The translations under genes and the position numbers were made by a program. The notes below the pieces were generated by a model. It worked only from the letters and a program-made list of their open reading frames with translations, made no database searches and was not told the DNA's origin. A DNA stretch of 64,000 bases from Diprion similis (taxonomy: Eukaryota; Arthropoda; Insecta; Hymenoptera; Diprionidae): positions 16,142,001 to 16,206,000 of the forward strand of contig NC_060110.1 in the NCBI RefSeq assembly GCF_021155765.1, read 5' to 3'. Positions 4,733 to 39,080 of this stretch are shown one piece after another (the first letter of the stretch is position 1; each line of letters starts with the position of its first letter).

Positions 4733-4923
4733 TTCAAGTTTTAGTGTTACCATCAACTTTACGCAGTTCGGAAAGGAAGTGTTTTCATATAAGAGATACG
4801 TAACAACACTCCCCAAATGCTGAATTGCTAGTTACCTTGAATATCAATTTGATGCAATTAAATTCTACTTATGTACAAAATATATAGGTATAGTAATTTA
4901 TGAATTCGAATTGTTTGATAACT

Positions 4924-4929
4924 AATAAA
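4924..4929 (+). terminator. Poly(A) signal of the zinc-finger gene
   Basis: AATAAA lies 192 bases after the stop codon at 4730-4732, in AT-rich sequence, and is the first canonical hexamer I found after the stop. Confidence 0.5.
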
Positions 4930-7387: not shown

Positions 7388-7391
7388 ATGG

Positions 7392-9193: not shown

Positions 9194-9281
9194 TGCAATG
9201 AGTAGTTGTTATAAGATGATTGAGTAGTTATATTAATTATTATGTGCAGTATACAATTTAGCATATGTGTATAATAATCTA

Positions 9282-9287
9282 AATAAA
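9282..9287 (+). terminator. Poly(A) signal of Naam
   Basis: AATAAA 89 bases after the Naam stop codon, followed by AT-rich sequence. Confidence 0.55.
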
Positions 9288-9982
9288 AACAGTATTTAAT
9301 CTAAGTTAAAGTAAATTAATCAATCAAACATATTAATGTTCTTTGCAAATCGTACATCCAAAGATGGTAGTGTTGTATCTATACTCCTGTGTACTGCAAC
9401 CATACCAACTGCAATGCAATGCTGGTATCCACTGGTGCATCTGCGCAGGAGTATTTCAGGTATGAAACGTTATTAATCGCGCAGTCACTGGATACACACT
9501 CGCGTTCTATGCCTAACCGTGAATCAGAAATTTATCGTTTCCGAATTACCTCCGTTTCAAATAATATAAATTGGCTAGTCCGTTAGCATCTGATCACTCA
9601 GAATAGGGCTGACGGATCGTCATTTAACAATATAATGAAACGGAAAATTGCTGCTGCGGACCCGACTGCCAGCACAGGTATCATTATTCGATAACATCAG
9701 TATCGTTGTTAGGTGCTCCCATAATTTTTTTTTAGAAAGTGTTTTTGACTGATTATATGTTGACATTAATTCTTCAGTCAACGCATTAACTTTTGTGTGG
9801 ATACAAACTGTTCCGAAAGGAGCCTTAGATTTTCGCGGGTGGTGGATTTTTGGCGCATGCGACACCTGCACTCAACTAGTGAACTTAAGCAAAACAATCA
9901 CACTCTGGATTCTGAATGCAGCATCGCTATTCATAAGATGGGCATATAAAAGTTTACAATTTCTACTGGATTAGTAGAAATA
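9288..9982 (+). promoter_or_regulatory. Naam-IntS4 intergenic region with NRF-1/EWG-like site
   Basis: Nearly 700 bases separate the Naam poly(A) signal from the IntS4 start. At 9853-9862 the sequence GCGCATGCGA matches most of the palindromic NRF-1 (fly Erect wing) consensus TGCGCATGCGCA, about 120 bases before the IntS4 ATG, a usual distance for a housekeeping promoter. No coding exon was found here. The motif is seen; factor binding is inferred. Confidence 0.35.
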
Positions 9983-12900
9983 ATGGCTGCATTAATGAAG
10001 AAACGAGTACTGGCGGAATTCAGCCAAAGTCAGGTGCGATCCATAGTACTTCAGATCGTTCAAATTACGTGTAACCCTGTTCGTACTTTGGAGGTTGGGG
10101 TTACGCGTACATGCTAAGCAAAAGAATATTCAGAACTAAATTGAAAAATATATTTCTTATTATTCCGGTTTCTAATTTCTAATGATGACGTACATATTCA
10201 TACCCATTTTATTTTTACAGGTATTGAACGAACCACCAGTGAAAAAAATTCGTACACTTCGTCGCTCTACATCGGTGAGCAATAAGAACAGTGGTGCAAG
10301 TGGTGATAGTAGTTCTGCGTTAGCTTACATAGAACTACTTGATAAATGCAAAGCTGGGAATGATGCATTACAGCTGCTTTTGCGAATATCTGATTCTCTC
10401 GCACAAGTGCAATCAGAAGATGTTTCATTGGCGGCAAAGCGACTTGCCGAACGGTTTGCTAATGAACCGGAAGCAGCCGTCCGTGCAAAGATTCTTTGGG
10501 TGCTAGCAGAGTTAGGGGGAGTTGCTGAAGACCCAGTAGACAAAGCTGACATCGTGGAAGAAACAGCAAATTTATTAAAAAACGAAGAGTCTCACAGAGT
10601 CAAAAGTCAAGGCTTGGCTACTTTGTTAAAATTGGGGAGTTTTCACAGGTATTTAATCATAAATGAAACTGTGATTGCAATCTTAAAATGGGGAGGGGGT
10701 ACTTATAAATGGGATTTTTTGTCTAAATTAAATTTATCAAATGTCTTAACATTGTTATGTTTTTATTGTTGTCTAGAAGTGTGGCACTACAAGCAGCTCG
10801 CGATCACTTACCAGACACATGGCATGGCGTACAGACACGGTGCTTATCTATAATTGGACGATTTCTGACTGCTAATACTTCAGATGAGATGTTGAAATTT
10901 GTTGGAAACTATGCTCATTCGCAAGATCCGCGAGTTAGGGCCCAAGCATTCGAGACTATGGCAGAATTACATTCGCGAAGGGGATGTCGTTTACCAGCTA
11001 GTCTATTTTCAGGAACATGCGACGCCCTTCGTGACGATTATGAGATTGTACGCCGAGCTGTATTGAAACTAATATGGCTGTTAGGTGTAGAATATCCTGA
11101 TAAGTAAGGGATATTAATATTATTTCTTAACTAGTCGTGCGACATGCAATACCGTGATTATACAAAATTTTGTATGCAGCATTTATCAGTTTCTTTTCTA
11201 ATTGAAAACTGTTCTTTTATTTATAGCATCATGGTAGGAGATGGCGAAGAATTGCGGATGATAGATTGTGCATTCTCAAAAATCTGTGGTCTGATGGGTG
11301 ACCTGTCACCTCGAGTTAGAGCTGCAGCAATGTCTTTATTGGGAATGATGAAAGGTGTTTCACGCAGATTTGTGGAGCAAGCATTGGATAAAAAGCAAAA
11401 GAGAGGCGGGGACGAAGGGCCAGAAGTTGAAGAAAGGAGCGGTTCTTGTGGAGCATTTATTCATGGACTGGAAGATGAATTTTTGGAAGTAAGTATAAGA
11501 TTCAATGTACTCGGTAAATATTCTCTATTTCCGAAAATAATTTTTTACAGGTACGTACAGCTGCTGTTGAAGCCTTGTGCTCTCTGTCTCTCGAGCAACC
11601 CAACATCGCGCGCACTTCACTTGATTTTATGGTGGACATGTTCAATGATGAAATTCAGGATGTGCGATTGAGAGCAATCGAATCATTGCGTAAAATGTCT
11701 GCCAGTGTCACTCTTAGGGAAGATCAGTTGGAAACTATACTTGGAGCTTTGGAAGATTTTTCCGGGGAAGTAAGAGAGGGGCTTCATGCCACTTTGGCTA
11801 CAAGTAGATTGGCCACTCGCAACTGTCTTCATATGTGTGTAAATAGATTATTGGATAATCTGGCCCGATATCCACAAGACAAAGAAAGTATTCGAGCTTG
11901 TTTAGCATCTCTCGGAGCTTCTCATCCATACCTTACTCTCCCCCTTGTGCCTCAGCTGCTCGGTCGGCATCCATTCTTCGATACACCTGAACCTGATGTC
12001 GATGAACCTTCTTGTATCCTTTGTTGTACTAATTATGTGAAAAATTTTATAGATTAAAATTGAACACAGTTGGTCGTGAAGAAAATTTAATATTTGACTA
12101 TCAATAAGTTTCAGTCAAGATTTCTGGAAAAACGTGTTATTTGAAAGTTTTCAATGATTCTTCTCATTAACAGAGAAATGATATATGATTTATGGTAAGA
12201 TATCCTTATGTGGTACAAATAGATGCCAGTGTATTGGTGCTGATATTCAATGCAGCGTTACACTGTCCAAGTATGCCGGCACTCTTCACAGAGCATGCTG
12301 CAAAGCATTACCATTACCTCAGAGACACTATGCCTCATCTCGTACCTCGGTTAAGACCTAATCCTACACCATTTCCCAGTCTTGGAAAAGATAACATTGA
12401 GGATGATGAATCCAGAGATCGAAGAGGTCGGGAGTTTTTGGAAAGAATGGTCGTTGGAGTGGAAAGAGCGAGGCCATACGGTAGAGTTCACACGCAATTG
12501 TTGGAAGTAGCAGGTGTTGAATTAGATCGATTGGCAGAGATGGATTCTGGAATGGAAGGAGCAGCGCGATTCACTGCTCTTTACATACGGTGCCTTCTTC
12601 TACTTAGGTCGATTATTCAAGAGCTTTCATCTCCTCCAACAAGTTCGTCGCCAACTATTTCTGGGTCAAGCGCAACCAACAATGTTGCTGTGTTACTACA
12701 GCATGCCCAAAAGTAAATATTACTTTCATATTGGTTGATAAATGCCATAGTCATAATAAGTTTTGGGATCTTGTAATTATTTCATTAGTTTTCACAAATA
12801 GAAATGAGCTTCACTGAATAATCTCTAAATATTTTCAGGCTGCAAAGATTGTTCACAGGCTTGGGTGCAGAAGAAATTTCTTTGGCCAATGATATGCATT

Positions 12901-13577
12901 TGAAAGCACTGGCAGTAGAATTGATACGTGTGACACGTGGTGCAACCGGAAGTGCGTTACCACTGGCTCGTCACTTCCTTTCACAGGCTGATGCTCTTCC
13001 ACCTGATTCTAGAAAATTACCACCATTCTCTAGGGCTTTGGTTCTTCAATTACCTTCTCTTGGAGAGGCGAAACCTGGAACTTTAACTCGCCTCTTGATA
13101 CCCCTGTTGCTAACACCTCCTGCACAAGGAGAGGAAAGGTTACCGAGACCATCTACAATGACTCGTGTTTGCCGTGCTATTATCGAAGAGCCGAGAGGAG
13201 ATGCAGATGCTGCCTTGAAATTTACGGGTGGTTTGCTATTAGGCATTCCTTTGTCAGCAAAGATTCTAAATCTTCGAGATCCGGGAATGTTACGTATTAA
13301 ACTACGCCACCCTGATCAACAGATACAATTACTACTACCACGACAATCTGACTTACGTTCTCAAACCACTAATCAAAGTGACTACAGGCTTAGGACTACT
13401 GTACTACTTTCGCATCAAGTTTGGATGGAAGCTTGTAACGTGGAGGTTTCATTATCGCTTCTTGTTCCTTCATCGCCTATTTGCACGCATCCTCCACTTG
13501 ACGATCCATGTGTCATTGACTTGTGCAAACCTGTCAAGGTTTCTGTCTCTCCCAAGCCAATCAAAAGAGGTATCTGA
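9983..13577 (+). CDS. IntS4: Integrator complex subunit 4, seven exons
   Basis: Exons 9983-10033, 10221-10648, 10777-11103, 11227-11488, 11551-12013, 12223-12712 and 12839-13577 join in phase to 919 residues (human INTS4 is about 960). The N-terminus MAALMKKRVLAEF matches the family. The body is HEAT-like repeats with the characteristic blocks CGAFIHGLEDE, VDMFNDEI, ITLREDQL-like TLREDQL, PLVPQLLGRHPFFDT and VLVLIFNAA. The C-terminal domain contains RFTGGL-like and TEACNVEV-like segments and ends KPVKVSVSPKPIKRGI. IntS4 is the scaffold that works with IntS9 and IntS11 in the Integrator cleavage module, which processes snRNA 3' ends and terminates paused RNA polymerase II in the nucleus. The exon 5/6 junction restores a Tyr codon across the intron (EPSYASVLVLIF), although the acceptor at 12221-12222 has a weak pyrimidine tract. 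Confidence 0.96.
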
Positions 13578-13601
13578 ATGAATACGATATTTTGGACAGT
13601 C

Positions 13602-13607
13602 AATAAA
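13602..13607 (+). terminator. Poly(A) signal of IntS4
   Basis: AATAAA 25 bases after the IntS4 stop. It implies a very short 3' UTR and would end IntS4 before the convergent Nup214 stop at 13856. Confidence 0.55.
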
Positions 13608-13855
13608 CATATATGCTTTGCACAGAAAAGCATGATTATTATTTAAAGACCATAATAATGATTTCATAACATCTGACACTAAACTTAATACAAAATCTTA
13701 TATATATAGTGATTAAAAATATAGTCTCAATTTGCAACAATGTCATACAAATATTTTACTACATGACTTTCATACATATTATAAAAAGAGACTTATCGGA
13801 TTGACTTCTACTGGGATAGTCTTGATGAATCTTGATGTGGTCACAGTAGATTTCA

Positions 13856-16800
13856 TTACCTCCAACTCTGGAAGGAGCTTCCTCTGGAAAAGCAACCAAT
13901 TGATAAAACTAATGGATTTATAAAATTATGTGTACAATATTCAGATCATAGAATTCTTCGATTATTGTTTAATTTTGATCTAAGACAATACAAAGTTAAT
14001 TGCTTAAATTTCATCAGACTATGCGACCCAAGTTAATTATATTCTAAGGTATCTACTCTCAATTATGCCTCAATGTTATCAAAGAAGTTTCAAGACATCA
14101 GCATTTTATATACGATACTCTTCTTGGTACAAATCAAAACACTTCGGTGAGTAAAAGATGTTGATTTTTCTATTGATATCTTTGTCAGAAATGTATGAAA
14201 TATTTTAAAGATAATTTGCTCACCCTGAAAAGGGCGGTGGGGCTGCTGGTTCTTGTTGCTTCTGAGCTAGATTGCCAAAAGTTAACCCGCCTTCCTGAGT
14301 GGCAAGATTTTCAAAAGTACTACTTCCACTGCTTTCACCAAATACTTTCTGCATTGAACTGCTGCCGATACTACTGGAGTTAGCTCCTAATGGGGATGGC
14401 GTACCAAAAACACCGAAAGCAGCTGAAACACATATTTTTACTTGAAAGAAATTGCTCGCTAATAAAATATCTCTTACAAATATTCACAAAGTAACTAGCA
14501 AGTGCTTACTTGTAGGTTGTGTAGCGCCTGAAAATGCAGTATTTGCAAATCCACCGCCAAATATAGGTTTTGATGTTCCAAAAGTGGATCCAAATGCTGG
14601 CTTGGCACCAAAAGTTGCTGTTTGGCTAAATGCTGGTGCGGTAGCAGTCAGTGTAGGTGAAGTTGACCCGATGTTAGTAGTAGGAGTAGGGATTACAGGT
14701 GCCCCTCCGAATGTTGATTGATTTGAGGGTGTAACTGTACCAAAGACTGATGAGGTAGGAGGATTTGATGATGTACCACCAAAAACTGATGCAGTTTGGG
14801 GATTAGAAATAGCTCCACCAAACATTGATGGACTCGTGGAAATTGTGAGACCACTTCCGAAAGCTGGTAGTGGTGGAGAACTAGCTGGAATAGCACCAAA
14901 CGTGAATGATTCAGCATCAGGAGGTCTCCCAAAAATGGAGGATGTCGGAGAAGTGACAGAGTCACCAGCAAATATTGGTGGTTTAATGGGATTGGTAGTA
15001 GCTTTGCCGAAAATTGATGCTGGTGAACTGGTAGTTCCTCCCAAAGCAGGTGCACTTGAAAATTGAGTAGAATTACCCCCAAATATTGATGGAGCGTTGG
15101 AAGTGGTAGAAATATCACCAAAAACTGAAGCTGAAGTTAAATTAGCGGAATTCTCAAATCCTGATGTAGCTGTGGATACAGCCGATGTTTCACCAGAAAC
15201 AGACTTCAGTGGATTGGCAGCAGATCCACCAAAAATAGATGTAGTTAGGCCAGTGGAGCTACTACCAAAAACTGGTAGCTTTGGTGTGCCAGGTGTTACA
15301 CTTTCACCAAATGAAGACACTATGTTACTACCCGCTGAGACCCCGCCAAACAGTGAAGACCCAGGAGGATTGCCAAAAATTGGATTTGCTGGCTTATCTT
15401 TCAAGATAGTTGAAGTTCCACCAAATATTGATCCAGGAGACGACGTCCCAGCAGATCCAAAAAAGCCACCAGTTGCCATTGTTGTTGTTGGTGTCACATT
15501 TTTGATCGAAGTATTGGAAGAAGTTTGTAGACCCAAGCCCATAGCTGACAGATCTAACGACTGAGCTGCGCTCGATGTTGGGCTGGCTACTGGTTTTGAG
15601 GCGAATGAAAAAGGAGTATTACTTGCAGATTTAGATGCAAAAGAAAAACTCTCTATCAGTGACGTTGATACATTTATCGAAGTTGTAGTCGTTAATGCTC
15701 TTTGTGTTGTGACTGGACTAGATGAGGTTTTTAGTGTGATAGGATAAGTCGGCGTTTGGCTAGCTTGTGTTTGAACTGTTGACATAAAACTAACAGTGGA
15801 TTGTGGGATGGTTTGTATAGAAGTGGAAACTACTATTGGAGTGATTGTTGGGGTAGATGTTGGAAGTATTGATTGTGCCTCAGTTTTAGCAATAACAGAA
15901 TTGAATGGAGGAGAGTCAATTTTTGGTAAAGGCTTATTAATAGCTGCGACTGTAGTTGGCATCAGTGCAGGAGGCAACAATGGCAATACTGATGATCTAG
16001 AAGTAGAAGAAGTAAATGGAGAAACTTCTGATATTGTCACAGATTTCATTCCACTGGGGATGCCACTTATGGGTTTTTGAGGTGTAGCAGGTGTGCCGAA
16101 TAGTGCAACTGAAGTTGGCTTGCTTTGTACAGACTGTGGTGTTATTGGGGTTTGCGATGCTACTAATGCAGCAGCAATTCGTGCTTTGCCATCCACTTGT
16201 GGTACTTTGATCGATGGAAGAGAAATGGATGCTGTAGACTTGTTCTGTGTGTTATTAGGTTGTACTCCAACTTGCGATGTTTTGATTGGTGGGGTGGAAG
16301 CAGATGTGGTGATCAAGGCTGGCGCTTTATTCTGTATATTGAGGTTGGGCTGAATTCCAACAGATCCAATGTTGGCGACAATTTGATCCAAAGATGCTAA
16401 GGGGCTTTTTGCAGCTGGGATAGGTGGAGGTGCAGGTAGTGCTTCTTCCCGCATCAGCTTTTCCATTAAGTTATTTTTACGTCGCTGTACTTCTTTAGGT
16501 GGACTTTGCATTGCCAGAGAAGATATTGTTGCCTCCAAGCGATCCTGAATTGCTGAAGGGGTTGCAGTTTTGATTACCTTTATCGTGGTTTGATTCAACA
16601 AATTCCTCAAAGTGCGTTGTTTCTTACAGCTGAAGCTACAATTTCGCTGTGCTATTGCTCTACATTTGTGCTCTATAGCACCACTCGGAGCTTTGTTATT
16701 CACAGATGAAGCCAGAGACATATCGGCCAAGGATTTATTTAATGAGGAAGTAATATCTCTACGTGTAAGACTTTTCCATTTCTTAACCTGAGCTTGAATC

Positions 16801-19195
16801 AAATTTTCCACCTTGGCAATATATTGTGAATGCTGAAGCATGATTTGATGAACAAACTCAAGTCTCGGTACCTTCATTTTATTTTTTTCTTTATTCATAT
16901 GCTCGAACCATTCGTAATCTAGAGCTCTAGCAGCTTGCTCCAATTGAGACTGAATATAATAGACAAGATTTTGCAATTCTTTCAACTTATTATTATTTCC
17001 TCGATTTTGGGGATTACTCGATGCATTAGAAGAACATTTGGATTTCGTTTCTTCCAGCCAGGCAAAAGTCTGTAACAACAAAGCTTTCAAGTAATTCATG
17101 TCACTGGTCAAACTAGCAGTTGTTTCCTGTAAATCTGTTAAGAAGCGTTCTATATTTTCAGATTTATCAATAAGTTGTGTACGTTCGTCTGGTGAGCCGA
17201 TATCAACGGACTGTATTTCCCTACGACTACTCAGTTCTTTTTCAAACTCACTGCATACTTCCACATATGTCCAAACACATAAATTACTGTCGATGCTGAC
17301 TTTCTCAGTCTCTTTTATTTCCTTGCTGGGTATTAGTGATGTGTCCACTTTCGATGATACTTCGATCTTCTCAATAGGGCAGTTTCTTACAAACAATTCA
17401 GTTTTCGATTGTGGAACAGAAATTTCCGAGGCCTTCAGTGATATGTTTGTGGTTACAGCTGATGTTGGTCGATCCATGATTGGCTCAATTTGTTTAGGTC
17501 GTGGAGTACTGGTGACTCTGCCATCCAAATTAAATGATATTTCAGTAGGAGCAAGATTCGGGCGTATTTCACTAAACGATGGAAGAGTTTCAGTTGGAGG
17601 AGAGCAGACTGGCGGAATTCCTGGCATTAAATTTACCATATGGAAACTACAGAGCTGCCCTGAAGTTCCAAATATGTGAAGTAGGGGTACAGGGTAAGGG
17701 AGCGTTGAACCCTCTCCACCCCACGGCAGCTTGTTTACAGATGTTCTATCTACTGCCAGGCCAACAGGAAAGGTTTCATTAGTTCGCACGAGGGGTAGCT
17801 GAGCTCTTCCACTGTCAACTAACTGCCATTGCTGCCATGTTGTTCCATTATCTGGCGAGCCAAGCACAGCAATTTCACTGCTGGTACTACTGGCAGCAAT
17901 AATTAATCCCCATTCCGCAATATGTTCAAAATAGTAACGTGGCGGATTGCCTTCTTTTCCTTCAACATCAGGCAAGCTATAAGTTATATCTTCGTAACAA
18001 GTGAAGATGCTCTTAGATTCACCTTTGGGGGCATCGATAATGAGGACATTAATTTGTAAGTCTTGTGGATTTAAATAGGCAGCGCAAAATTGGTAACTGC
18101 TGATCCATAAAAGAGCAATGACACTCCCGATGCTGGGATCAGGACCTGCAATGATTCTGGCTGCCTTCAAATCTGGTTTGAGCTGTAGTAAACTTCCATT
18201 CTTGCTTCCCACTACTAATTGTTTTCCCTTCGGACTCCAAGCCACACAGAGCACATCTAACTTTTCTAATTTTTCCAATATTGTTAGGACTGCTGAATTT
18301 TTGTCAGATGTTATATTAAAACTGCCTATAGCGTGATCACTTGTTACTGTACACAGCATCCCAGGGATGCAAGGGTTCCATCGAAGATCCAAAACGTGGA
18401 CATTATATGAGGACGATAATTTGATCTCTCGTAGGAGCTCCAATTGCTGTAAGTATGTGAAATAGATAGATTATTATTGCAACCTCAGATACAATGTATT
18501 CTCAATTCATATTTGAATAATGTGGAGAAAATGACATTATTTTTAGATTTTAAATATACCTGTTGTACAACTGAAGCAGCATTATAAATGTAAGCTGTAG
18601 GAGAATCAAAAACGATAGCTAAAAATGAACAATCGCAATTAAATGCAATGCGAGTAACTTTTGCTGGCAGAACAAATTCTTTTTTCCACTCCTTGTCTGG
18701 ATTGTCGCCACTTTTCAGGGCCGTGATTTTCTGGTCGCAAGCCGTATAAATCAATCCACGTTTCCCATCTATCGCAACTAGGCTACAGGCTACGGGGATT
18801 GAGCTGAATCCGTCTGATATTTTCTGATGAGTGGATTGTTTAAATTGAAATTCCTGCAAAAGATTCAACATGACAACTGAATATGCTACAGTAATAGATG
18901 TTAATTACTACACATGTATCATTAAAGTTGATGACTCCGAATTGTAGTAATTTGAATGAGTAGTTCATTGTGTAGAGTTACAGTTAGGGTACACAATGAT
19001 TGCAGTTAAAATTTCATTAATGTTGTCAATTAAAACTTTTATTTATATTTATTTCATCGATCTAAGTAGAACCAGAAATCAAAACAAACTTAAGGTTATG
19101 ACTGACAAGTTGTAGATTGATAAATGAATTGTTCAAAGAAATAAACAGTGGAAAAAGCGTACCAGTATATCCTTAGACTCCGGTGCCGCCTTCAT
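13856..19195 (-). CDS. Nup214: Nuclear pore protein Nup214, five exons
   Basis: On the minus strand, exons 19195-19163, 18853-18560, 18446-14510, 14422-14224 and 13883-13856 join in phase to 1496 residues. Exon 1 encodes only MKAAPESKDIL, matching the segment before the propeller in the human protein. Residues to about 400 form the N-terminal seven-bladed beta-propeller (CVAWSPKGKQLVVG, RYYFEHIAEWGLIIAAS), which binds the DEAD-box helicase Dbp5/DDX19 in human. A coiled-coil region (about 540-635) would contact Nup88/Nup62. From about residue 1040 to the end lies Ser/Thr/Pro-rich FG-repeat sequence (many IFGG, VFGG, AFG), which binds Crm1 and other transport receptors. The last exon is 28 bases and gives GGSSFQSWR, resembling the conserved GGWRS end. 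The protein sits on the cytoplasmic face of the pore and serves mRNA export. Antisense open frames here are shadows of the low-complexity coding sequence. Confidence 0.95.
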
Positions 19196-20017
19196 TTTTT
19201 ATAATCTCATTAATTCACCGACTTAGGAATATTAAAGTTTTCAAGTGTAAAGTTACGGCGCTCTTCAGTAAAAAATGAGACTAGCCAACCAATGAGGAAA
19301 AAGCCGTCGCGAGTGAGGCTAGCCTGGGTCGGCTCTGGAGTCGCTGCGGGCAACGGACAGATCAGAAGTGACAGCCGAAAAATTGCCAAATAGTATGGAA
19401 GTGGAAGGCAAAAGACGATAAGCTGCAAAACAGTATTACAGTGATAGACAAAAAGTGAAAATATCTACACATTAGATAAGACGTCTGACTATTATGAGAA
19501 GAGAAATGTGCAATATAAATACCTTAGGCAGAATGTAAAAAATGTTATATAAAATACTTATTTTTGTAATTTTTGAGTATACTTTGAGTTCCGGCTTGCG
19601 CGCAGGTGCAGTATGCATCTGCGGGAAACGACATATTATACCTATGTATATTGTATTTTTACTACTCCATGTGGTCTGGATTGGAATAAATAATGAAAGA
19701 AAAACTTTCCTATATTTCTTGGGGTACAATGCGTCTCAAAGGGGTCATTTGAATCAGATCAGATGCAAAAAGTTTTTCGCTCCTGATCACCATTTTTCCA
19801 ACCGAAATTTGTCTGTTAGGAAATGATGGTGATATTATTTCTCCGATGTACTATATCGCCGTGAATTTGCAAGTATTATCGTTGGACGCATTCCGGAATC
19901 CAGAGCAACAGCCGAAAAATCCTTCATTTCCTTAGCTGATGGACCTACGTTGATCAGAATATCTTTTTTGCATTGTTGAGGGTTCCGTAAGTCAAGACGG
20001 GTCGCCGAAATCAACTA
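19196..20017. other. Nup214 upstream region and left flank of the satellite
   Basis: The first 150 bases or so upstream of the Nup214 start (about 19196-19350) are locally GC-richer and should hold its promoter. The rest has no believable gene. Part of it (19501-19685) is a diverged copy of sequence found on the far side of the satellite, so much of this stretch belongs to the repeat locus. Confidence 0.45.
19501..19685 (+). repeat. Left diverged copy of a satellite-flanking direct repeat
   Basis: The core CCTTAGGCAGAAT (from 19532) is shared exactly with the right flank (from 28331). About 50-60 bases on, a second matching block begins: cgcgcaggtgcagtatgcat here against cgtgcagatacaatggcggc there, then gggaaacga against agaaaacga, and atattgtatt in both. 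Both copies are in the same orientation and about 8.8 kb apart. Identity is moderate by eye and broken by indels. Confidence 0.6.
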
Positions 20018-23000
20018 TGATATCGATGCTCCGTGTCTGAGGGCATGCCTGGTTGCTTGCGATCGCTTGTAATCGCTTGCTTACATGCTCCTGACATATA
20101 GAATTAAGAAAATCGGAGAAATTTCAGCACAAAATTACTCCTGGTATCAGGAGAACATCTGAGCCTAGGAGGTCGATCAAAAACAAGGACTGATTGATGG
20201 ACTGCTTGTGATATCGATGCTGTGTCTCTGAAGGCATGCCTGCTTGCTTCCGATCGCTTGTAATCGCTTGCTTACATGCTCCTGACATATAGAATTAAGC
20301 GAATCGGAGAAATTTTTGCGTAAAATTACTCCTGGTATCAGGAGAACATCTGAGCCGAGGAGGTCGATCAAAAACGAGGACTGATTGATTGACTGCTTGT
20401 GATATCGATGCTGTGTGTCTGAAGGCATACCCGCTTGCTTGAGATCGCTTGTAATCGCTTGCTTACATGCTACTGACATATAGAATTAAGCGCATCGGAG
20501 AAATTTCAGCGTAAAATTACTCCTGGTATCAGGAGAACATCTGAGCCGAGGAGGTCGATCAAAAACAGAGACTGATTGATTGACTGCTTGTGATATCGAT
20601 GCTGTGTCTCTGAAGGCATGCCTGCTTGCTTGAGATCGCTTGTAATCGCTTGCTCACATGCTACTGACGTATAGACTTAAGCGGATCGGACAAATCTTAG
20701 CGTAAAATTACTCCTGGTATCAGGAGAACATCTGAGCCGAGGAGGTCGATCAAAAACAGAGACTGATTGATTGACTGCTTGTGATATCGATGCTGTGTCT
20801 CTGAAGGCATGCCTGCTTGCTTGCGATCGCTTGTAATCGCTTGCTTACATGCTACTGACATATAGAATTAAGCGGATCGGAGGAATTTCAGCGTAAAATT
20901 ACTCCTGGTATCAGGAGAACATCTGAGCCGAGGAGGTCGATCAAAAACAAGGACTGATTGATTGACTGCTTGTGATATCGATGCTGTGTCTGAAGGCATG
21001 CCTGCTTGCTTGCGATCGCTTGTAATCGCTTGCTTACATGCTACTGACGTATAGACTTAAGCGGATCGGAGAAATCTTAGCGTAAAATTACTCCTGGTAT
21101 CAGGAGAACATCTGAGCCGAGGAGGTCGATCAAAAACAGAGACTGATTGATTGACTGCTTGTGATATCGATGCTGTGTCTCTGAAGGCATGCCTGCTTGC
21201 TTGCGATCGCTTGTAATCGCTTGCTTACATGCTACCGACGTATAGAATTAAGCGGATCGGAGAAATCTTAGCGTAAAATTACTCCTGGTATCAGGAGAAC
21301 ATCTGAGCCGAGGAGGTCGATCAAAAACAAGGACTGATTGATTGACTGCTTGTGATATCGATGCTGTGTGTCTGAAGGCATGCCTGCTTGCTTGAGATCG
21401 CTTGTAATCGCTTGCTTACATGCGGCTGACATATAGAATTAAGCGGATCGGAGAAATCTTAGCGTAAAATTACTCCTGGTATCAGGAGAACATCTGAGCC
21501 GAGGAGGTCGATCAAAATCAGAGACTGATTGATTGACTGCGTGTGATATCGATGCTGTGTGTCTGAAGGCATGCCTGCTTGCTTGCGATCGCTTGTAATC
21601 GCTTGCTTACATGCTACTGACATATAGAATTAAGCGGATCGGAGAAATCTTAGCGTAAAATTACTCCTGGTATCAGGAGAACATCTGAGCCGAGGAGGTC
21701 GATCAAAAACAGAGACTGATTGATTGACTGCGTGTGATATCGATGCTGTGTCTCTAAAGGCATGCCTGCTTGCTGGCGATCGCTTGTAATCGCTTGCTTA
21801 CATGCTACTGACATATAGAATTAAGCGGATCGGAGGAATTTCAGCGTAAAATTACTCCTGGTATCAGGAGAACATCTGAGCCGAGGAGGTCGATCAAAAA
21901 CAAGGACTGATTGATTGACTGCTTGTGATATCGATGCTGTGTCTCTGAAGGCATGCCTGCTTGCTTGCGATCGCTTGTAATCGCTTGCTTACATGCTACT
22001 GACGTATAGACTTAAGCGGATCGGAGAAATCTTAGCGTAAAATTACTCCTGGTATCAGGAGAACATCTGAGCCGAGGAGGTCGATCAAAAACAGAGACTG
22101 ATTGATTGACTGCTTGTGATATCGATGCTGTGTCTCTGAAGGCATGCCTGCTTGCTTGCGATCGCTTGTAATCGCTTGCTTACATGCTACCGACGTATAG
22201 AATTAAGCGGATCGGAGAAATCTTAGCGTAAAATTACTCCTGGTATCAGGAGAACATCTGAGCCGAGGAGGTCGATCAAAAACAAGGACTGATTGATTGA
22301 CTGCTTGTGATATCGATGCTGTGTGTCTGAAGGCATGCCTGCTTGCTTGAGATCGCTTGTAATCGCTTGCTTACATGCGGCTGACATATAGAATTAAGCG
22401 GATCGGAGAAATCTTAGCGTAAAATTACTCCTGGTATCAGGAGAACATCTGAGCCGAGGAGGTCGATCAAAAACAGAGACTGATTGATTGACTGCTTGTG
22501 ATATCGATGCTGTGTGTCTGAAGGCATGCCTGCTTGCTTGCGATCGCTTGTAATCGCTTGCTTACATGCTACTGACATATAGAATTAAGCGGATCGGAGG
22601 AATTTCAGCGTAAAATTACTCCTGGTATCAGGAGAACATCTGAGCCGAGGAGGTCGATCAAAAACAAGGACTGATTGATTGACTGCTTGTGATATCGATG
22701 CTGTGTCTCTGAAGGCATGCCTGCTTGCTTGCGATCGCTTGTAATCGCTTGCTTACATGCTACTGACATATAGAATTAAGCGGATCGGAGGAATTTCAGC
22801 GTAAAATTACTCCTGGTATCAGGAGAACATCTGAGCCGAGGAGGTCGATCAAAAACAAGGACTGATTGATTGACTGCTTGTGATATCGATGCTGTGTCTC
22901 TGAAGGCATGCCTGCTTGCTTGCGATCGCTTGTAATCGCTTGCTTACATGCTACTGACGTATAGACTTAAGCGGATCGGAGAAATCTTAGCGTAAAATTA

Positions 23001-26000
23001 CTCCTGGTATCAGGAGAACATCTGAGCCGAGGAGGTCGATCAAAAACAGAGACTGATTGATTGACTGCTTGTGATATCGATGCTGTGTCTCTGAAGGCAT
23101 GCCTGCTTGCTTGCGATCGCTTGTAATCGCTTGCTTACATGCTACCGACGTATAGAATTAAGCGGATCGGAGAAATCTTAGCGTAAAATTACTCCTGGTA
23201 TCAGGAGAACATCTGAGCCGAGGAGGTCGATCAAAAACAAGGACTGATTGATTGACTGCTTGTGATATCGATGCTGTGTGTCTGAAGGCATGCCTGCTTG
23301 CTTGAGATCGCTTGTAATCGCTTGCTTACATGCGGCTGACATATAGAACTAAGCGGATCGGAGAAATCTTAGCGTAAAATTACTCCTGGTATCAGGAGAA
23401 CATCTGAGCCGAGGAGGTCGATCAAAAACAGAGACTGATTGATTGACTGCTTGTGATATCGATGCTGTGTGTCTGAAGGCATGCCTGCTTGCTTGCGATC
23501 GCTTGTAATCGCTTGCTTACATGCTACTGACATATAGAATTAAGCGGATCGGAGGAATTTCAGCGTAAAATTACTCCTGGTATCAGGAGAACATCTGAGC
23601 CGAGGAGGTCGATCAAAAACAAGGACTGATTGATTGACTGCTTGTGATATCGATGCTGTGTCTCTGAAGGCATGCCTGCTTGCTTGCGATCGCTTGTAAT
23701 CGCTTGCTTACATGCTACTGACGTATAGACTTAAGCGGATCGGAGAAATCTTAGCGTAAAATTACTCCTGGTATCAGGAGAACATCTGAGCCGAGGAGGT
23801 CGATCAAAAACAGAGACTGATTGATTGACTGCTTGTGATATCGATGCTGTGTCTCTGAAGGCATGCCTGCTTGCTTGCGATCGCTTGTAATCGCTTGCTT
23901 ACATGCTACCGACGTATAGAATTAAGCGGATCGGAGAAATCTTAGCGTAAAATTACTCCTGGTATCAGGAGAACATCTGAGCCGAGGAGGTCGATCAAAA
24001 ACAAGGACTGATTGATTGACTGCTTGTGATATCGATGCTGTGTGTCTGAAGGCATGCCTGCTTGCTTGAGATCGCTTGTAATCGCTTGCTTACATGCGGC
24101 TGACATATAGAATTAAGCGGATCGGAGAAATCTTAGCGTAAAATTACTCCTGGTATCAGGAGAACATCTGAGCCGAGGAGGTCTATCAAAAACAGAGACT
24201 GATTGATTGACTGCGTGTGATATCGATGCTGTGTGTCTGAAGGCATGCCTGCTTGCTTGCGATCGCTTGTAATCGCTTGCTTACATGCTACTGACATATA
24301 GAATTGAGCGGATCGGAGGAATTTCAGCGTAAAATTACTCCTGGTATCAGGAGAACATCTGAGCCGAGGAGGTCGATCAAAAACGAGGACTGATTGATTG
24401 ACTGCTTGTGATATCGATGCTGTGTGTCTGAAGGCATGCCTGCTTGCTTGAGATCGCTTGTAATCGCTTGCTTACATGCGGCTGACATATAGAATTAAGC
24501 GGATCGGAGAAATCTTAGCGTAAAATTACTCCTGGTATCAGGAGAACATCTGAGCCGAGGAGGTCGATCAAAAACAGAGACTGATTGATTGACTGCGTGT
24601 GATATCGATGCTGTGTGTCTGAAGGCATGCCTGCTTGCTTACGATCGCTTGTAATCGCTTGCTTACATGCTACTGACATATAGAATTAAGCGGATCGGAG
24701 AAATCTTAGCGTAAAATTACTCCTGGTATCAGGAGAACATCTGAGCCGAGGAGGTCGATCAAAAACAGAGACTGATTGATTGACTGCGTGTGATATCGAT
24801 GCTGTGTCTCTAAAGGCATGCCTGCTTGCTGGCGATCGCTTGTAATCGCTTGCTTACATGCTACTGACATATAGAATTAAGCGGATCGGAGGAATTTCAG
24901 CGTAAAATTACTCCTGGTATCAGGAGAACATCTGAGCCGAGGAGGTCGATCAAAAACAAGGACTGATTGATTGACTGCTTGTGATATCGATGCTGTGTCT
25001 CTGAAGGCATGCCTGCTTGCTTGCGATCGCTTGTAATCGCTTGCTTACATGCTACTGACGTATAGACTTAAGCGGATCGGAGAAATCTTAGCGTAAAATT
25101 ACTCCTGGTATCAGGAGAACATCTGAGCCGAGGAGGTCGATCAAAAACAGAGACTGATTGATTGACTGCTTGTGATATCGATGCTGTGTCTCTGAAGGCA
25201 TGCCTGCTTGCTTGCGATCGCTTGTAATCGCTTGCTTACATGCTACCGACGTATAGAATTAAGCGGATCGGAGAAATCTTAGCGTAAAATTACTCCTGGT
25301 ATCAGGAGAACATCTGAGCCGAGGAGGTCGATCAAAAACAAGGACTGATTGATTGACTGCTTGTGATATCGATGCTGTGTGTCTGAAGGCATGCCTGCTT
25401 GCTTGAGATCGCTTGTAATCGCTTGCTTACATGCGGCTGACATATAGAATTAAGCGGATCGGAGAAATCTTAGCGTAAAATTACTCCTGGTATCAGGAGA
25501 ACATCTGAGCCGAGGAGGTCGATCAAAAACAGAGACTGATTGATTGACTGCTTGTGATATCGATGCTGTGTGTCTGAAGGCATGCCTGCTTGCTTGCGAT
25601 CGCTTGTAATCGCTTGCTTACATGCTACTGACATATAGAATTAAGCGGATCGGAGGAATTTCAGCGTAAAATTACTCCTGGTATCAGGAGAACATCTGAG
25701 CCGAGGAGGTCGATCAAAAACAAGGACTGATTGATTGACTGCTTGTGATATCGATGCTGTGTCTCTGAAGGCATGCCTGCTTGCTTGCGATCGCTTGTAA
25801 TCGCTTGCTTACATGCTACTGACGTATAGACTTAAGCGGATCGGAGAAATCTTAGCGTAAAATTACTCCTGGTATCAGGAGAACATCTGAGCCGAGGAGG
25901 TCGATCAAAAACAAGGACTGATTGATTGACTGCTTGTGATATCGATGCTGTGTCTCTGAAGGCATGCCTGCTTGCTTGCGATCGCTTGTAATCGCTTGCT

Positions 26001-28118
26001 TACATGCTACTGACGTATAGACTTAAGCGGATCGGAGAAATCTTAGCGTAAAATTACTCCTGGTATCAGGAGAACATCTGAGCCGAGGAGGTCGATCAAA
26101 AACAGAGACTGATTGATTGACTGCTTGTGATATCGATGCTGTGTCTCTGAAGGCATGCCTGCTTGCTTGCGATCGCTTGTAATCGCTTGCTTACATGCTA
26201 CCGACGTATAGAATTAAGCGGATCGGAGAAATCTTAGCGTAAAATTACTCCTGGTATCAGGAGAACATCTGAGCCGAGGAGGTCGATCAAAAACAAGGAC
26301 TGATTGATTGACTGCTTGTGATATCGATGCTGTGTGTCTGAAGGCATGCCTGCTTGCTTGAGATCGCTTGTAATCGCTTGCTTACATGCGGCTGACATAT
26401 AGAATTAAGCGGATCGGAGAAATCTTAGCGTAAAATTACTCCTGGTATCAGGAGAACATCTGAGCCGAGGAGGTCTATCAAAAACAGAGACTGATTGATT
26501 GACTGCGTGTGATATCGATGCTGTGTGTCTGAAGGCATGCCTGCTTGCTTGCGATCGCTTGTAATCGCTTGCTTACATGCTACTGACATATAGAATTGAG
26601 CGGATCGGAGGAATTTCAGCGTAAAATTACTCCTGGTATCAGGAGAACATCTGAGCCGAGGAGGTCGATCAAAAACGAGGACTGATTGATTGACTGCTTG
26701 TGATATCGATGCTGTGTGTCTGAAGGCATGCCTGCTTGCTTGAGATCGCTTGTAATCGCTTGCTTACATGCGGCTGACATATAGAATTAAGCGGATCGGA
26801 GAAATCTTAGCGTAAAATTACTCCTGGTATCAGGAGAACATCTGAGCCGAGGAGGTCTATCAAAAACAGAGACTGATTGATTGACTGCGTGTGATATCGA
26901 TGCTGTGTGTCTGAAGGCATGCCTGCTTGCTTGCGATCGCTTGTAATCGCTTGCTTACATGCTACTGACATATAGAATTGAGCGGATCGGAGGAATTTCA
27001 GCGTAAAATTACTCCTGGTATCAGGAGAACATCTGAGCCGAGGAGGTCGATCAAAAACGAGGACTGATTGATTGACTGCTTGTGATATCGATGCTGTGTG
27101 TCTGAAGGCATGCCTGCTTGCTTGAGATCGCTTGTAATCGCTTGCTTACATGCGGCTGACATATAGAATTAAGCGGATCGGAGAAATCTTAGCGTAAAAT
27201 TACTCCTGGTATCAGGAGAACATCTGAGCCGAGGAGGTCGATCAAAAACAGAGACTGATTGATTGACTGCGTGTGATATCGATGCTGTGTCCACAAAGGC
27301 ATGCCTGCTTGCTTGCGATCGCTTGTAATCGCTTGCTTACATGCTACTGACGTATAGAATTAAGCGGATCGGAGGAATTTCAGCGTAAAATTACTCCTGG
27401 TATCAGGAGAACATCTGAGCCGAGGAGGTCGATCAAAAACAAGGACTGATTGATTGACTGCTTGTGATATCGATGCTGTGTCTCTGAAGGCATGCCTGCT
27501 TGCTTGCGATCGCTTGTAATCGCTTGCTTACATGCTACCGACGCATAGAATTAAGCGGATCGGAGAAATCTTAGCGTAAAATTACTCCTGGTATCAGGAG
27601 AACATCTGAGCCGAGGAGGTCGATCAAAAACAGAGACTGATTGATTGACTGCGTGTGATATCGATGCTGTGTCTTTAAAGGCATGCCTGCTAGCTTGCGA
27701 TCGCTTGTAATCGCTTGCTTACATGCTACTGACATATAGAATTAAGCAGATCGGAGGAATTTCAGCGTAAAATTACTCCTGGTATCAGGAGAACATCTGA
27801 GCCGAGGGGGTCGATCAAAAACAAGGACTGATTGATGGACTGCTTGTGATATCGATGCTGTGTGTCTGAAGGCATGCCTGCTTGCTTGCGATCGCTTGTA
27901 ATCGCTTGCTTACATGCTACTGACATTAAAAATTAGCAAATCGGAGAAATCTTAGCGTAAAATTACTCCTGGTATCAGGAGAACATCTGAGCCGAGGAGG
28001 TCGATCAAAAACAAGGACTGATTGATTGCTTGCTTGTGATATCGATGCTGTGTCTCTGAAGGCATGCCTGCTTGCTTGCGATCGCTTGTAATCGCTTGCT
28101 TATATGCTACTACCATAT
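20018..28118 (+). repeat. Satellite array, about 42-43 monomers of 191 bp
   Basis: The landmark GATATCGATGCTGTG recurs every 191 bases (for example 20210, 20401, 20592, 20783, 20974, then 21163 after one 189-base unit) until 28038; 8019 bases cover 42 intervals. All monomers are head-to-tail on one strand. Each carries a short dyad (CTCCTG-gtat-CAGGAG), and most contain GCGATCGC. One monomer counted by eye is about 46% GC, above the surrounding DNA. Edge monomers are the most diverged (20018-20400 and 27840-28118), as expected when unequal exchange homogenises the centre. There are stops in all frames and 191 is not a multiple of 3, so it is non-coding. Monomer types recur in a regular order (see findings). 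It lies between Nup214 and Cfp1. I do not recognise the family. Confidence 0.97.
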
Positions 28119-29027
28119 TCGCACCAATTTTTTAAAGAGGGGAAGATTCAATACAAGCTCATAGGTTGAAAGTTCAGTTCCAGTTTAATCAACATGCGTT
28201 AATTGTAGTACAAGTGTTTTGGTGTCAGTGTATAGTATTTTAACAAGTTGTCAAATCGTATTGTGGTCGAAATATTATAACATAAGAAATCAAACTAGTA
28301 TATGATATTGATGAAGTGCAACATACATAACCTTAGGCAGAATATGAAATGTTATTGTTATGCGAGATAGTTATTATGGTTATTATCGTCATTTGTAAGC
28401 AAGTGTGAAGCTCTGATCTGCGTGCAGATACAATGGCGGCTGTCTGCAGAAAACGATCATAATTGATATTGTATTATTACCATTTCATCTAACTCCCGAA
28501 GTTAATTAATAAATTTATTGATACCTTCCAATTTTTTCAACTGTTAGTGCTACGATTTTTGAAATCCCTCTGTCTATTCTCGGGTTTCAAATGGTCTCCC
28601 GCGGAAAAGCGTTACTGGAATCACCATAAAGGCGAAACGTTATTCGCCCCAAGATGAAAGAAAAGTAAATGCTTTGGATTATTTCTGAAAATTTTGACGA
28701 TTCTGAAACATGATGGAATGAATTTTTCCATGCACCATATCGATGTAATTTTGCAAGAGCAATAGTTGCGTGCAGTCCGAGTACACTGCGAGCGACGGAT
28801 CAAGAATTACAGTCTATACTGTAGAAAGAAATACTGTATTACCGGAAAATTAACCGTATCAACAGGTTCATCTTATGTACAATAACTATCAATAAGCTCT
28901 GAAATAACATGACTAGGTCGTTGAGTAATTCATGTATAACAATCTGAAAATTACATAATGAAAGCAGCCAACTTATCGTTGATTCACCAAGTTCTTTACA
29001 TTCAATTCGATTATATTTAAAAGTTGT
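28119..29027. other. Right flank of the satellite and Cfp1 downstream region
   Basis: No gene is supported. The stretch contains the right flanking repeat (28316-28500). A second stretch (about 28735-28800) is weakly similar to left-flank sequence around 19845-19905; on the minus strand both read as loosely similar short peptides, possibly remnants of an old mobile element. The Cfp1 3' UTR should start at 29027 and run leftwards. Confidence 0.4.
28316..28500 (+). repeat. Right diverged copy of a satellite-flanking direct repeat
   Basis: Same orientation as the left copy at 19501-19685: it shares CCTTAGGCAGAAT (28331-28343), an atgttat block soon after, the cgtgcag...ctgcagaaaacga block, and a gatattgtattattaccatt block. 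The two copies bracket the whole array. Confidence 0.6.
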
Positions 29028-32000
29028 TCAATTTTTAGTGTGTTGCTTCTGGAACTGGGTATTATATCTTCGTTGTAACTCTTCCTCCATTGCCTCAATC
29101 TGTTCCCTACTTTGTTCTTGCGTCATTTGTTCCATTAACTCATGATTGTATGTCGAATGCAGCATCAGGGCCAAAACACCAGCTCGCGTTGCCATGTTTG
29201 ATCGGATTTGTCTCTCTTGTTCCACCAATTCATCGATTTTCAACCACTCTCGCACTCGTTCCATGTCTATTTCAGCACGTCTCAGTTTTTCCCATACATA
29301 GTGCTTTAGGCAGCTCTTTTTCGGCGCGCGACAAAATTCACCAGTAGTGTCGAACACATTTGTGACCAATGGGCAGCCACATACTTCAGTTTCACTTATT
29401 TTCGGATCCTTGCAGTGTTCAGGACATAAGACCCGCAATCGTTTGCAATATGTTCGATTGATAGGATTGTAAAAGTCGCAAAACATCACTTGACCCTCAA
29501 TACGTGTTTTGAACATGGATCCGAATGATGCTTGAGATTCATACTGAAACAAGTACATAAATATTTTAGACAAATAAATGTAGAGTCTAACCGTACCGTT
29601 ACTAACCCAGTGATTTGTAGCTTGGTTATTTTGGGTGCATATTATACATTACACTAAGATATTCTCAAGGTGGTTGAAAAATATTATGAATGTCATATTT
29701 CAAGTATTTTGTAGAATCGTAGAAATCATTTAGAACAATCTTTTTTATGACAAATGCTTAGAGTTGTATGGTATCTAACTACATGAGGCTACGTATAATA
29801 AGTTCCATATCGAAACTGATTCTAGCACAAAAAGTTGTGAACTTGCTTAATAAGAAAATTATTATTCAACAATTCATATAAGGCACTCCGAGACATCATA
29901 AAATCTTTCAACAGTATGGAATCACAGTAAAAACTCCACAAAAAGTAAGCAATTACCTTGTTAAAACATTTCTCCATATGTTTAATGGCAGTCCGAGAAT
30001 GGATTTCATGTCCACACGTAATGCAGTACATGCTCATTTCCGTATCATCCAAATCGTCAACTTCAGTTTTTGGATCAATAGTAGCTTGCTTAGCCCTTTC
30101 TAAAATACGATCAAGTTCCGAATGCCGCTTGTCCAATTCTTGCAGGATCCTTCTAACATCGTTTTGCTGTTTTCTAACCATCTCTAATGCTCGCCTATTA
30201 TTTTGTTCAGCAACACAGGATGTTAATGACCATTCTTGAATTCTCTGTGGTAGTACCTGGTATATTCTATTCGTAGCCAATTTCATTCCGCACTCATCTG
30301 AACAATACTTGCTACCGAGCCGAGATTGTTTTGTACATGCGGGACCGTAACATTGCCGTGGCTGGTCCAAATGCTCAGCTCTTTCGTTGCTAGAGTCCCT
30401 TTTTCTTTTTCTACCGGGCTTTGAACCTTTATTATATCCTTTCAAGGGTTTGGGTGGTGCACCTAGTACTCTGCATGTTCTCTGAATACATCTCAACTTT
30501 AATCTGATAGAAGGACCAAATTTTTTCAAGTGTCTACAAGCATCGCATTTGCCACAGTTCTCTGAGCGAAGACAGCCTGAACATTCGCCACAACGTTTTG
30601 AAGATTTCTTCACAATAGTAGGATCCCAAGGAGCATCATATTCGTATCGAATGGCTCTTTCTTTCTCTTTATGCTTCTTGTATTTATGATCATCCTGTTC
30701 GGATCTACGGGGTTTATAACGTGTTATGAGTGTCGAGTCCTCTTCCCGACATCGCTGGAATAGAAATGAAATTTTCAGATTTGTTTTTAATTACAGAAAC
30801 AAATAAGGTCAAGTATGTATTCACTGAAAATTTCTAATTCAACTTTTGTTCATCAATGTATGTACGTCAGGGTGGTCGTTATTTGGGGTAAAAATTAATT
30901 TTACCCTTTTTGCCCCCTTAATTGGTTTGTAATAAGTAAAAAGTGCTTGTAAAATAATTTCTGAAAATTTCAATATTTGACAAACATATTTAGGTCCACA
31001 GTAAAATAGTGACTGCAAATGCAGGAAAACCCCATGTATTTTAAATGGAAAACTTCAACACCTGTGGTCAAGGGTTAAACATTTTTTTTTTAAATCCGAA
31101 AAAATTACAGCGATACTTTTTACGTATTTCGAACTGATTTACTTGACGAAAAGGGTAAAATTAATTTTGACTCCAAATAATGTCCACTCTAATGTGCATA
31201 CATGTAGTATAGTGTAATAAAATGAAACAATCTGTATTTTTTGTATTGAACTGCTTATTGTCAAACTTTGTTGTCTAAAAAAAGATTTAATATCTCAATC
31301 TCTACCAACAAATTCTCTGAGAAATGTTCATATTATGATGTGATGATTATTTGATACATAAATAGACTTACAACACAGAAAAACTGCTTGATATGTTTCG
31401 CTTCTTTTTCTGTAATGTTGATGCAATCGCCATGGTACCATTCCTCGCAAGCATCACATCCGCTATAATTAATTGTATAGTCTTGGTTACAAAATGTGTA
31501 ATAAAGGGTGACATGAATAAAAGTTATTCTATTCGTAATAATGACATCTACTATGTAAGTAAGTTATTGAGAACAGTCCAATTTGCCTATTTAGCTATAA
31601 AATAGTAGAATATATCAAAATCATTAAGTGAAAATCTATCACATAAAGAAAACCTACTTTTACACAATTCACGATTTAACCAATAAATGATTCAGAAATT
31701 TAAATTCAAGTACTTTAGGTGTTAGCTTTAGGTGTTTTGAAAAGGCAAGAAATGATGTAAGAAAATTACAGTCAACCACAGTGACTACATTATTGGCAAC
31801 TTGCATCCGACCATTAATGTATTCAGAGAATAAGAATTAAGACTTACATCATGAAGCGGGAGCTATCAGAGCTACGACATATGCAATAAGCTTGACCATC
31901 TTGCTTCAGTAATGTTGCAATTTTACTTTTCCTTTCCGGTAACATAAATTGCTTTGCAATCTCTTCTTTCTGTATAAAACAAAGTATTTATACAGATATA

Positions 32001-39028: not shown

Positions 39029-39080
<52 letters not shown>
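39029..39080. repeat. (TA)26 microsatellite
   Basis: An uninterrupted run of about 52 bases of alternating T and A in the long non-coding region. It needs no other explanation than slippage. Confidence 0.97.

What the first reader, a model, noticed from the sequence alone, without database searches (positions are those of the whole stretch)
20018..28118. Irregular higher-order repeat structure inside the 191-bp satellite
Monomers fall into types by linked variants: gacgtatagactt with cagagactg (A), ctaccgacg with caaggactg (B), ttgagatc with cggctgac (C), and ggaggaatttcag with caaggactg (D). They recur in the order A-B-C-D. The B marker appears at about 21231, 22186, 23141, 23905, 25242, 26197 and 27534, so the spacing is 5, 5, 4, 7, 5 and 7 monomers. 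Blocks of 4-7 monomers have therefore been amplified together, as in centromeric higher-order repeats, yet this array sits between two housekeeping genes.
Basis: seen in the sequence. Interest (0 to 1): 0.7.

Follow-up and report, generated by a model that had tools for sequence, protein, structure and literature searches.

The report
Dispersed satellite with block duplications
A stretch of 42 near-identical 191-letter repeats between two ordinary genes has grown by copying blocks of several repeats at a time, and it is one of more than thirty similar satellite islands found on five chromosome-sized sequences of what is probably an insect genome.

Summary
Window 20018-28118 is a 191-bp array (42 full monomers, 23 distinct). 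Marker order A-B-C-D and block duplications far exceed shuffled monomer order. The longest block (7 monomers, 21354-22690 copied at 24410-25746) differs by 2 of 1337 bases.

The array is not a single locus. It sits in a composite island of a kind that I placed at 34 sites on contigs C1, C4, C6, C7 and C13. Markers A, B and D occur in none of 19 other fetched array loci, so the higher-order pattern looks local. Only 5 of 19 tested arrays exceed all shuffles for collinear blocks. The C6 arrays form a chromosome-specific subfamily.

Outside a conserved 44-bp core, monomer consensuses are more alike between islands than their flanks in 32 of 33 comparable pairs, which suggests exchange between islands. 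Islands in some clusters are spaced more evenly than chance (post hoc, mixed).

Best reading: a low-copy (about 0.1% of the genome, estimated) dispersed satellite evolving by in-array block duplication plus exchange between islands. Centromere function is unsupported and largely untested. The species is unknown.

The parts
20018..28118 (+). 191-bp satellite array, 42 full monomers plus a partial one, A-B-C-D block structure
21354..22690 (+). 7-monomer block m08-m14, copy 1 (1337 bp)
   Evidence: 2 differences from copy 2
24410..25746 (+). 7-monomer block m24-m30, copy 2 (16 monomers downstream)
22882..23645 (+). clean A-B-C-D tetramer (m16-m19)
19476..19701 (+). left shared spacer piece of the island (homologous to spacers of other islands)
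28119..28671 (+). right shared spacer of the island; long matches beside other arrays are 64-69% identical
28672..28812 (+). piece of the 312/342-bp satellite that borders many islands
14484..18904 (-). Nup214 gene (two reading-frame pieces), 5' side towards the island
   Evidence: 14484-18470 matches Nup214 at 5.2e-42; 18485-18904 is the adjoining frame, no Pfam match, assigned by position
29028..30790 (-). CXXC1/Cfp1-type gene exons (zf-CXXC, CpG_bind_C), 3' side towards the island

Best explanation
This is one island of a low-copy, dispersed satellite family lying among genes. Within the array, blocks of several monomers are duplicated, most likely by unequal exchange or repair slippage in register. 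This has built an A-B-C-D unit on an older two-state alternation and then copied longer blocks (displacements of 5, 11, 12 and 16 monomers among the longest). Between islands, monomer sequence is exchanged or re-seeded (gene conversion or re-insertion of excised arrays), so the satellites stay alike while their flanks drift apart. A 44-bp core is kept, perhaps because a protein binds it. Shown: block duplication, private variants, chromosome-specific subfamily, flank-versus-monomer contrast, conserved core. Inferred: the exchange mechanism and the reason for core conservation.
For: Block structure exceeds shuffles. The four longest block pairs differ by 11 of 4393 bases, about 0.25%. For 509 of 536 monomers from 20 arrays the nearest relatives lie only in the same array (518 with ties). 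A 24-mer found in four C6 arrays has 103 copies genome-wide, and all 100 listed lie on C6 (3 not listed). Consensus identity is 86-96% among the eight C6 arrays with 15 or more monomers, against 81-90% to arrays of other contigs (L014 with 2 monomers left out). Non-core monomer identity exceeds flank identity in 24 of 24 C6 pairs (means 0.887 and 0.724) and 8 of 8 C1/C4 pairs (0.956 and 0.832) that had a comparable flank. The core varies at 4 of 44 sites against 61 of 146 elsewhere across 19 array consensuses (P 0.0012 after allowing for choice of window), and within arrays it deviates 1.2% against 3.4%. Island anatomy is shared.
Against: Only 5 of 19 tested arrays show more collinear blocks than every one of 500 shuffles, so block duplication on this scale is not general. 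On C13 the one pair with a comparable flank goes the other way (L020/L021: flank 0.915, non-core 0.876). Of 48 pairs examined 15 had no comparable flank (4 of 28 C6, 2 of 10 C1/C4, 9 of 10 C13), and L014 and L023 were left out of that test. Flank values use the best single aligned piece per side (108-1246 bp in all), which may pair non-orthologous spacers. The core is not invariant: 5 of 20 arrays (L010, L011, L013, L014, L016) hold no exact copy of its 28-bp part, and its limits were chosen after seeing the data. Identity does not fall significantly with distance along C6 (28 pairs, P 0.21). Assembly error in the array cannot be excluded without reads.
Confidence: 0.7

Rival explanations
1. 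The islands are copies of a non-autonomous transposable element (Helitron/Helentron-like) whose central tandem repeats have expanded after insertion.
For: Both flanks are shared in the same order in the fullest islands: 312-bp satellite, about 400-bp spacer, [191]n, 39-bp minisatellite, spacer, 312-bp unit. In C1/C4 pairs the flanks are 78-89% alike. Such a carrier is documented for dispersed satellite-like arrays in the Pacific oyster (PMC7492417, passages).
Against: No transposase-like match among the 10 flank reading frames scanned or the 10 window frames. No inverted repeats at the island ends in two 30-kb stretches (blastn, E 0.001). Islands there end in satellite rather than sharp common termini. 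Three C13 arrays (L017, L018, L019) have sequence unique in the compared set right outside the array, which an element with fixed flanks would not give.
Confidence: 0.2
2. The 191-bp satellite is the centromeric or pericentromeric satellite, or a unit of a repeat-based polycentric or holocentric centromere, and the window holds one unit.
For: Nucleosome-scale monomer, conserved core, higher-order blocks, islands gathered in one or two internal zones per contig (C1 8.1-11.8, C4 11.6-14.0, C6 15.8-21.5, C13 0.7-1.1 and 6.5-6.9 Mb), and quasi-regular spacing in some clusters. Rhynchospora holocentromeres use a 172-bp satellite evenly distributed in about 20-kb domains (PMC11538461, passage).
Against: Arrays are short, lie beside genes where that was looked at, and make up an estimated 0.1% of the assembly. 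They were met on only five contigs, though listings are capped and not all 1167 core copies were placed (one search lists 100). No CENP-B-box-like motif (TTCGNNNNANNCGGG) in the window array or 19 fetched loci. No CENP-A or chromatin data.
Confidence: 0.06
3. The order of variants or the array length is an assembly artefact.
For: Tandem arrays are prone to collapse or misjoining; no reads were available.
Against: A random misjoin would not be expected to give ordered blocks up to 7 monomers with 2 differences, the largest departure from the consensus in the first monomer (15 differences in m01; 9 in m03, m41 and m42), and shared anatomy in other islands. An array-length error remains possible.
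Confidence: 0.05

Closest known systems
Drosophila 1.688 (359-bp) X-euchromatic satellites, and Rsp-like
   Same: Satellite arrays dispersed in euchromatin and enriched on one chromosome (about 1% of X-linked euchromatin in D. melanogaster, X enrichment about 15- to 50-fold; PMC7919458, passages), near genes, with less efficient homogenisation among distant, shorter arrays (PMC10048060, passages).
   Different: No sequence comparison was made. Arrays here are longer (9-47 full monomers in 19 of 20 arrays, against mostly up to six, PMC10048060), lie on several contigs and often sit in a shared composite island.
[quoted passage not shown]
   Same: Blocks of monomers amplified together; an underlying two-state alternation, like the dimeric pattern with a CENP-B box in alternate monomers (PMC8122249, passages).
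   Different: Array is 8 kb, intergenic and irregular; no CENP-B-box-like motif; no centromere evidence.
Tribolium castaneum euchromatic satellites
   Same: Insect satellite families with short arrays in euchromatin, some near genes (PMC10048060 and PMC12692304, passages).
Oyster Cg_HINE Helentron-borne tandem repeats
   Same: Tandem arrays between two conserved flanks, dispersed in the genome (PMC7492417, passages).
   Different: No element termini found here; some arrays lack the shared outer flanks; the outer flanks are partly satellite themselves.

Membership tests
Higher-order-repeat satellite array | Collinear runs of monomer types repeated more often than in shuffled order | tested here: met
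Higher-order-repeat satellite array | One fixed unit length repeated regularly | tested here: not met
   B spacing 5, 5, 4, 7, 5, 7 monomers; best lags 16 and 5
Dispersed (euchromatic) satellite DNA | Non-coding tandem arrays of one family at many loci among genes | tested here: met
   34 placed islands; neighbouring Pfam matches such as Med18, DNA polymerase B subunit and carbonic anhydrase; no frame of 130 aa or more in the window array. Chromatin state itself was not testable.
Centromeric satellite | Enrichment of CENP-A or kinetochore proteins | not testable with these tools
   no chromatin data
Centromeric satellite | Large arrays on all chromosomes | tested here: inconclusive
   arrays seen were about 0.7 to 9 kb on C1, C4, C6, C7, C13, degenerate on C2; search listings are capped
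Mammalian-type CENP-B-box satellite | CENP-B-box-like motif in monomers | tested here: not met
   0 matches in the window array and 19 loci (degenerate motif typed from recall)
Helitron/Helentron non-autonomous element | Constant element termini (subterminal inverted repeats, 3' palindrome) | tested here: inconclusive
   no inverted pair at the island ends in two 30-kb stretches; short subterminal repeats were not searched systematically
Drosophila 1.688-like dosage-compensation satellite | Confinement to the X chromosome and a role in its recognition | not testable with these tools
   sex linkage of C6 is unknown; the family is on five contigs

The most novel reading that the evidence does not exclude
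The islands are units of a chromosome-scale system: short satellite arrays with a conserved 44-bp protein-binding core, placed at quasi-regular intervals of about 0.1-0.45 Mb within cluster zones and kept chromosome-specific by exchange, acting as distributed chromatin or pairing sites, or as a polycentric centromere region, in an insect.
Probability: 0.1. Interest if true: 0.75.

Novelty: new member of a known kind. Interest (0 to 1): 0.42.

Why it matters
It gives a clear case of higher-order repeat formation in a short, gene-flanked array, where the steps can be read off the sequence and sister arrays with known positions and flanks act as controls. The contrast between alike monomers and divergent flanks makes exchange between dispersed arrays testable. 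If the even spacing and the conserved core survive independent testing, they would point to a function for dispersed satellites.

Tried and rejected
Structured-RNA reading: no Rfam family at gathering score in the window. One monomer (21163-21353) folds only slightly better than shuffles (z -1.62 plus strand, -0.76 minus). Rejected.

Coding reading: no frame of 130 aa or more lies inside the 191-bp array. A 1308-codon frame through the neighbouring 312-bp satellite of L014 is open in 14 of 15 units there but in only 3 of 46 units in eight other loci; taken as chance. It draws three Pfam matches, two of them over the curated cut-off for the whole protein but none with a single stretch that passes on its own, as summed weak repeats would give.

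Organism: a 269-Mb assembly in 60 contigs with TTAGG repeats at the right end of C6 and the left end of C13, so probably an insect. Two family probes for order (Lipoprotein_11; SDP_N) rang nowhere, controls included, and say nothing. Paper searches aimed at a 191-bp, chromosome-specific or hymenopteran, bee or sawfly satellite gave listings in which I recognised no description of this repeat; only titles and abstract openings were seen, so this does not show absence in print.

Distance decay of identity along C6: not significant (28 pairs, Spearman -0.24, P 0.21). The impression that I noted is dropped.

Spacing: on C6 eight islands give P 0.001, but adding the ninth at 21.5 Mb gives P 0.78. 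C1 is not significant (P 0.06 with 7 islands, 0.56 with 8). An earlier, incomplete list of six C4 islands gave P 0.09; the nine give 0.0009. Leave-one-out P rises to 0.058 on C4 and 0.105 on C6. The pooled result (0 of 20000, 3000 and 2000 shuffles as regular) is post hoc and rests on clusters cut at 0.75 Mb, which drops one island each on C1 and C6.

Two attempts to find a k-mer that would sample every array once for a full census gave nothing usable.
Full report
Observation. The 191-bp array at 20018-28118 is real. Cutting it at its GATATCGATGC start gives 42 full monomers, 23 of them distinct, 95.8% alike on average. The order A-B-C-D-A accounts for 25 of 41 neighbour steps; 5000 shuffles gave at most 16. 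Beneath it lies a two-state alternation (cagagactg / caaggactg): 27 switches against a shuffled mean of 17.2 and maximum of 26. Repeated blocks reach 7 monomers (m08-m14 against m24-m30, 2 differences in 1337 bp), then 6, 5 and 5. In 1000 shuffles the longest run was 6, and the number of runs of 3 or more was at most 6 against 16 observed. The four longest block pairs differ by 11 of 4393 bases, so the copying is recent relative to the 4% spread among monomers.

Surroundings. The array lies between Nup214 and a CXXC1-type gene, both on the minus strand. It is bordered by sequence that recurs beside other arrays: a left piece at 19476-19701, a right spacer at 28119-28671 and a piece of a 312/342-bp satellite at 28672-28812. 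The island thus spans about 9.3 kb, and beyond it (to 14001 and 34000) the window shared no sequence with the other loci compared.

Family. I fetched twenty 10-kb loci. Nineteen held full monomers and with the window gave 536 in 20 arrays, each array in one orientation. Array length ranged from about 0.7 kb (L014) to about 9 kb (C4 13.41 Mb). I placed 34 islands: 8 on C1, 9 on C4, 9 on C6, 1 on C7 and 7 on C13 (tally); degenerate ones lie on C2. The exact 28-bp core has 1167 copies genome-wide and none of the reversed control. With 397 of these in the fetched loci and window, which hold 536 full monomers, I estimate about 1,600 monomers, or 0.3 Mb (0.1% of 269 Mb). Search listings are capped, so contigs without listed arrays are not shown to lack them. 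Two islands with longer flanks (C1 11.39 Mb, C4 12.44 Mb) show the fullest anatomy: 312-bp satellite, spacer, [191]n, 39-bp minisatellite, spacer, 312-bp satellite, then sequence unique in the set. The minisatellite motif is also present in three C13 loci and the C7 locus, and absent from the C6 loci and the window. Of 10 flank reading frames scanned, 7 had a Pfam match, two of them weak: Med18 (L012), a DNA polymerase B subunit (L019), carbonic anhydrase twice (beside the C1 11.39-Mb island) and actin-like beside the degenerate C2 locus L028. So genes lie within a few kilobases of at least three other islands; the rest were not examined for genes.

Local origin of the higher-order pattern. 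Markers A, B and D occur in none of 19 other loci, C once. For 509 of 536 monomers the nearest relatives are only in the same array. Among 19 arrays with at least 9 monomers (L014 dropped), collinear blocks exceed all 500 shuffles in 5 (window, L010, L017, L021, L025). In the lag test three (window, L009, L010) were beyond all 1000 shuffles, L009 at lag 1 only, i.e. neighbours alike. L024 shows another outcome: a unit of about 2.4 kb that takes in the 39-bp minisatellite is repeated within the array (94% over 2384 bp).

Exchange between islands. C6 arrays form their own subfamily. Non-core monomer consensuses are more alike than flanks in 24 of 24 C6 pairs and 8 of 8 C1/C4 pairs that had a comparable flank, against 0 of 1 on C13; 4 of 28, 2 of 10 and 9 of 10 pairs had none. 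Conversion between islands or re-seeding by excised arrays would both give this; the C13 arrays without shared outer flanks (L017-L019) favour some re-insertion. Identity does not fall significantly with distance along C6.

Conserved core. AAAATTACTCCTGGTATCAGGAGAACATCTGAGCCGAGGAGGTC varies at 4 of 44 sites between 19 array consensuses, the rest at 61 of 146 (scan-corrected P 0.0012). Within arrays it also deviates less (1.2% against 3.4% on average; in L021 only 3.9% against 6.0%). It is not invariant: 5 of 20 arrays have no exact copy of its 28-bp part. It holds the inverted repeat CTCCTG-GTAT-CAGGAG, seen directly. Binding of a protein is inference.

Spacing. Within clusters, gaps are 0.16-0.44 Mb on C4 (9 islands, P 0.0009), 0.31-0.68 on C6 (8, P 0.001; with a ninth, P 0.78), 0.13-0.63 on C1 (7, P 0.06; with an eighth, 0.56), and 0.09-0.12 and 0.17-0.18 on C13. 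Pooled, no shuffle was as regular (0 of 20000, 3000 and 2000 under three nulls). This is post hoc and depends on the cluster rule; I keep it as unexplained.

Comparison. Dispersed satellites in euchromatin are well known in insects (passages of PMC10048060, PMC12692304, PMC7919458), and block amplification is the accepted origin of higher-order repeats (passages of PMC8122249). The present case joins the two. It lacks the fixed unit of a regular higher-order repeat, shows no CENP-B-box-like motif, and has no chromatin evidence for a centromere. A transposable-element carrier is not excluded but lacks termini and a transposase-like neighbour in what was scanned. I therefore class it as a new member of a known kind.

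Noticed in passing
L024 (C4:13955001-13965000) about 2787-9994: The 39-bp minisatellite flank has been taken into the 191-bp array and amplified with it as a unit of about 2.4 kb, another higher-order form.
   Followed up: partly
L020 and L021 (C13 6.67 and 6.85 Mb): Flanks 91.5% alike while array consensuses are less alike (non-core 87.6%), the one pair against the general trend; may be a later segmental duplication followed by array turnover.
   Followed up: no
L034 (right end of C4): The contig end carries TTAGG units alternating with TCAGG (TTAGGTCAGGTT-like) followed by other sequence, unlike the plain TTAGG at the C6 and C13 ends.
   Followed up: no
L014 978-4901, minus: 1308-codon open frame through a 312-bp satellite array; other 312-bp arrays are mostly not open in that frame (3 of 46 units), so probably chance.
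   Followed up: yes
C1:5.59-5.63, C8:2.94 and 4.73, C11:2.57 and 2.61, C2:11.67, C12:5.18 Mb: Repeated matches to the 312/342-bp satellite, over 43 kb on C1, where no 191-bp arrays were listed beside them.
   Followed up: no
window 12001-20000: CpG observed/expected falls to 0.54-0.68 over this gene-coding stretch against 0.85-1.22 in the other 4-kb steps, as gene-body methylation would give.
   Followed up: no
window 39029-39080: Perfect (TA)26 microsatellite.
   Followed up: no
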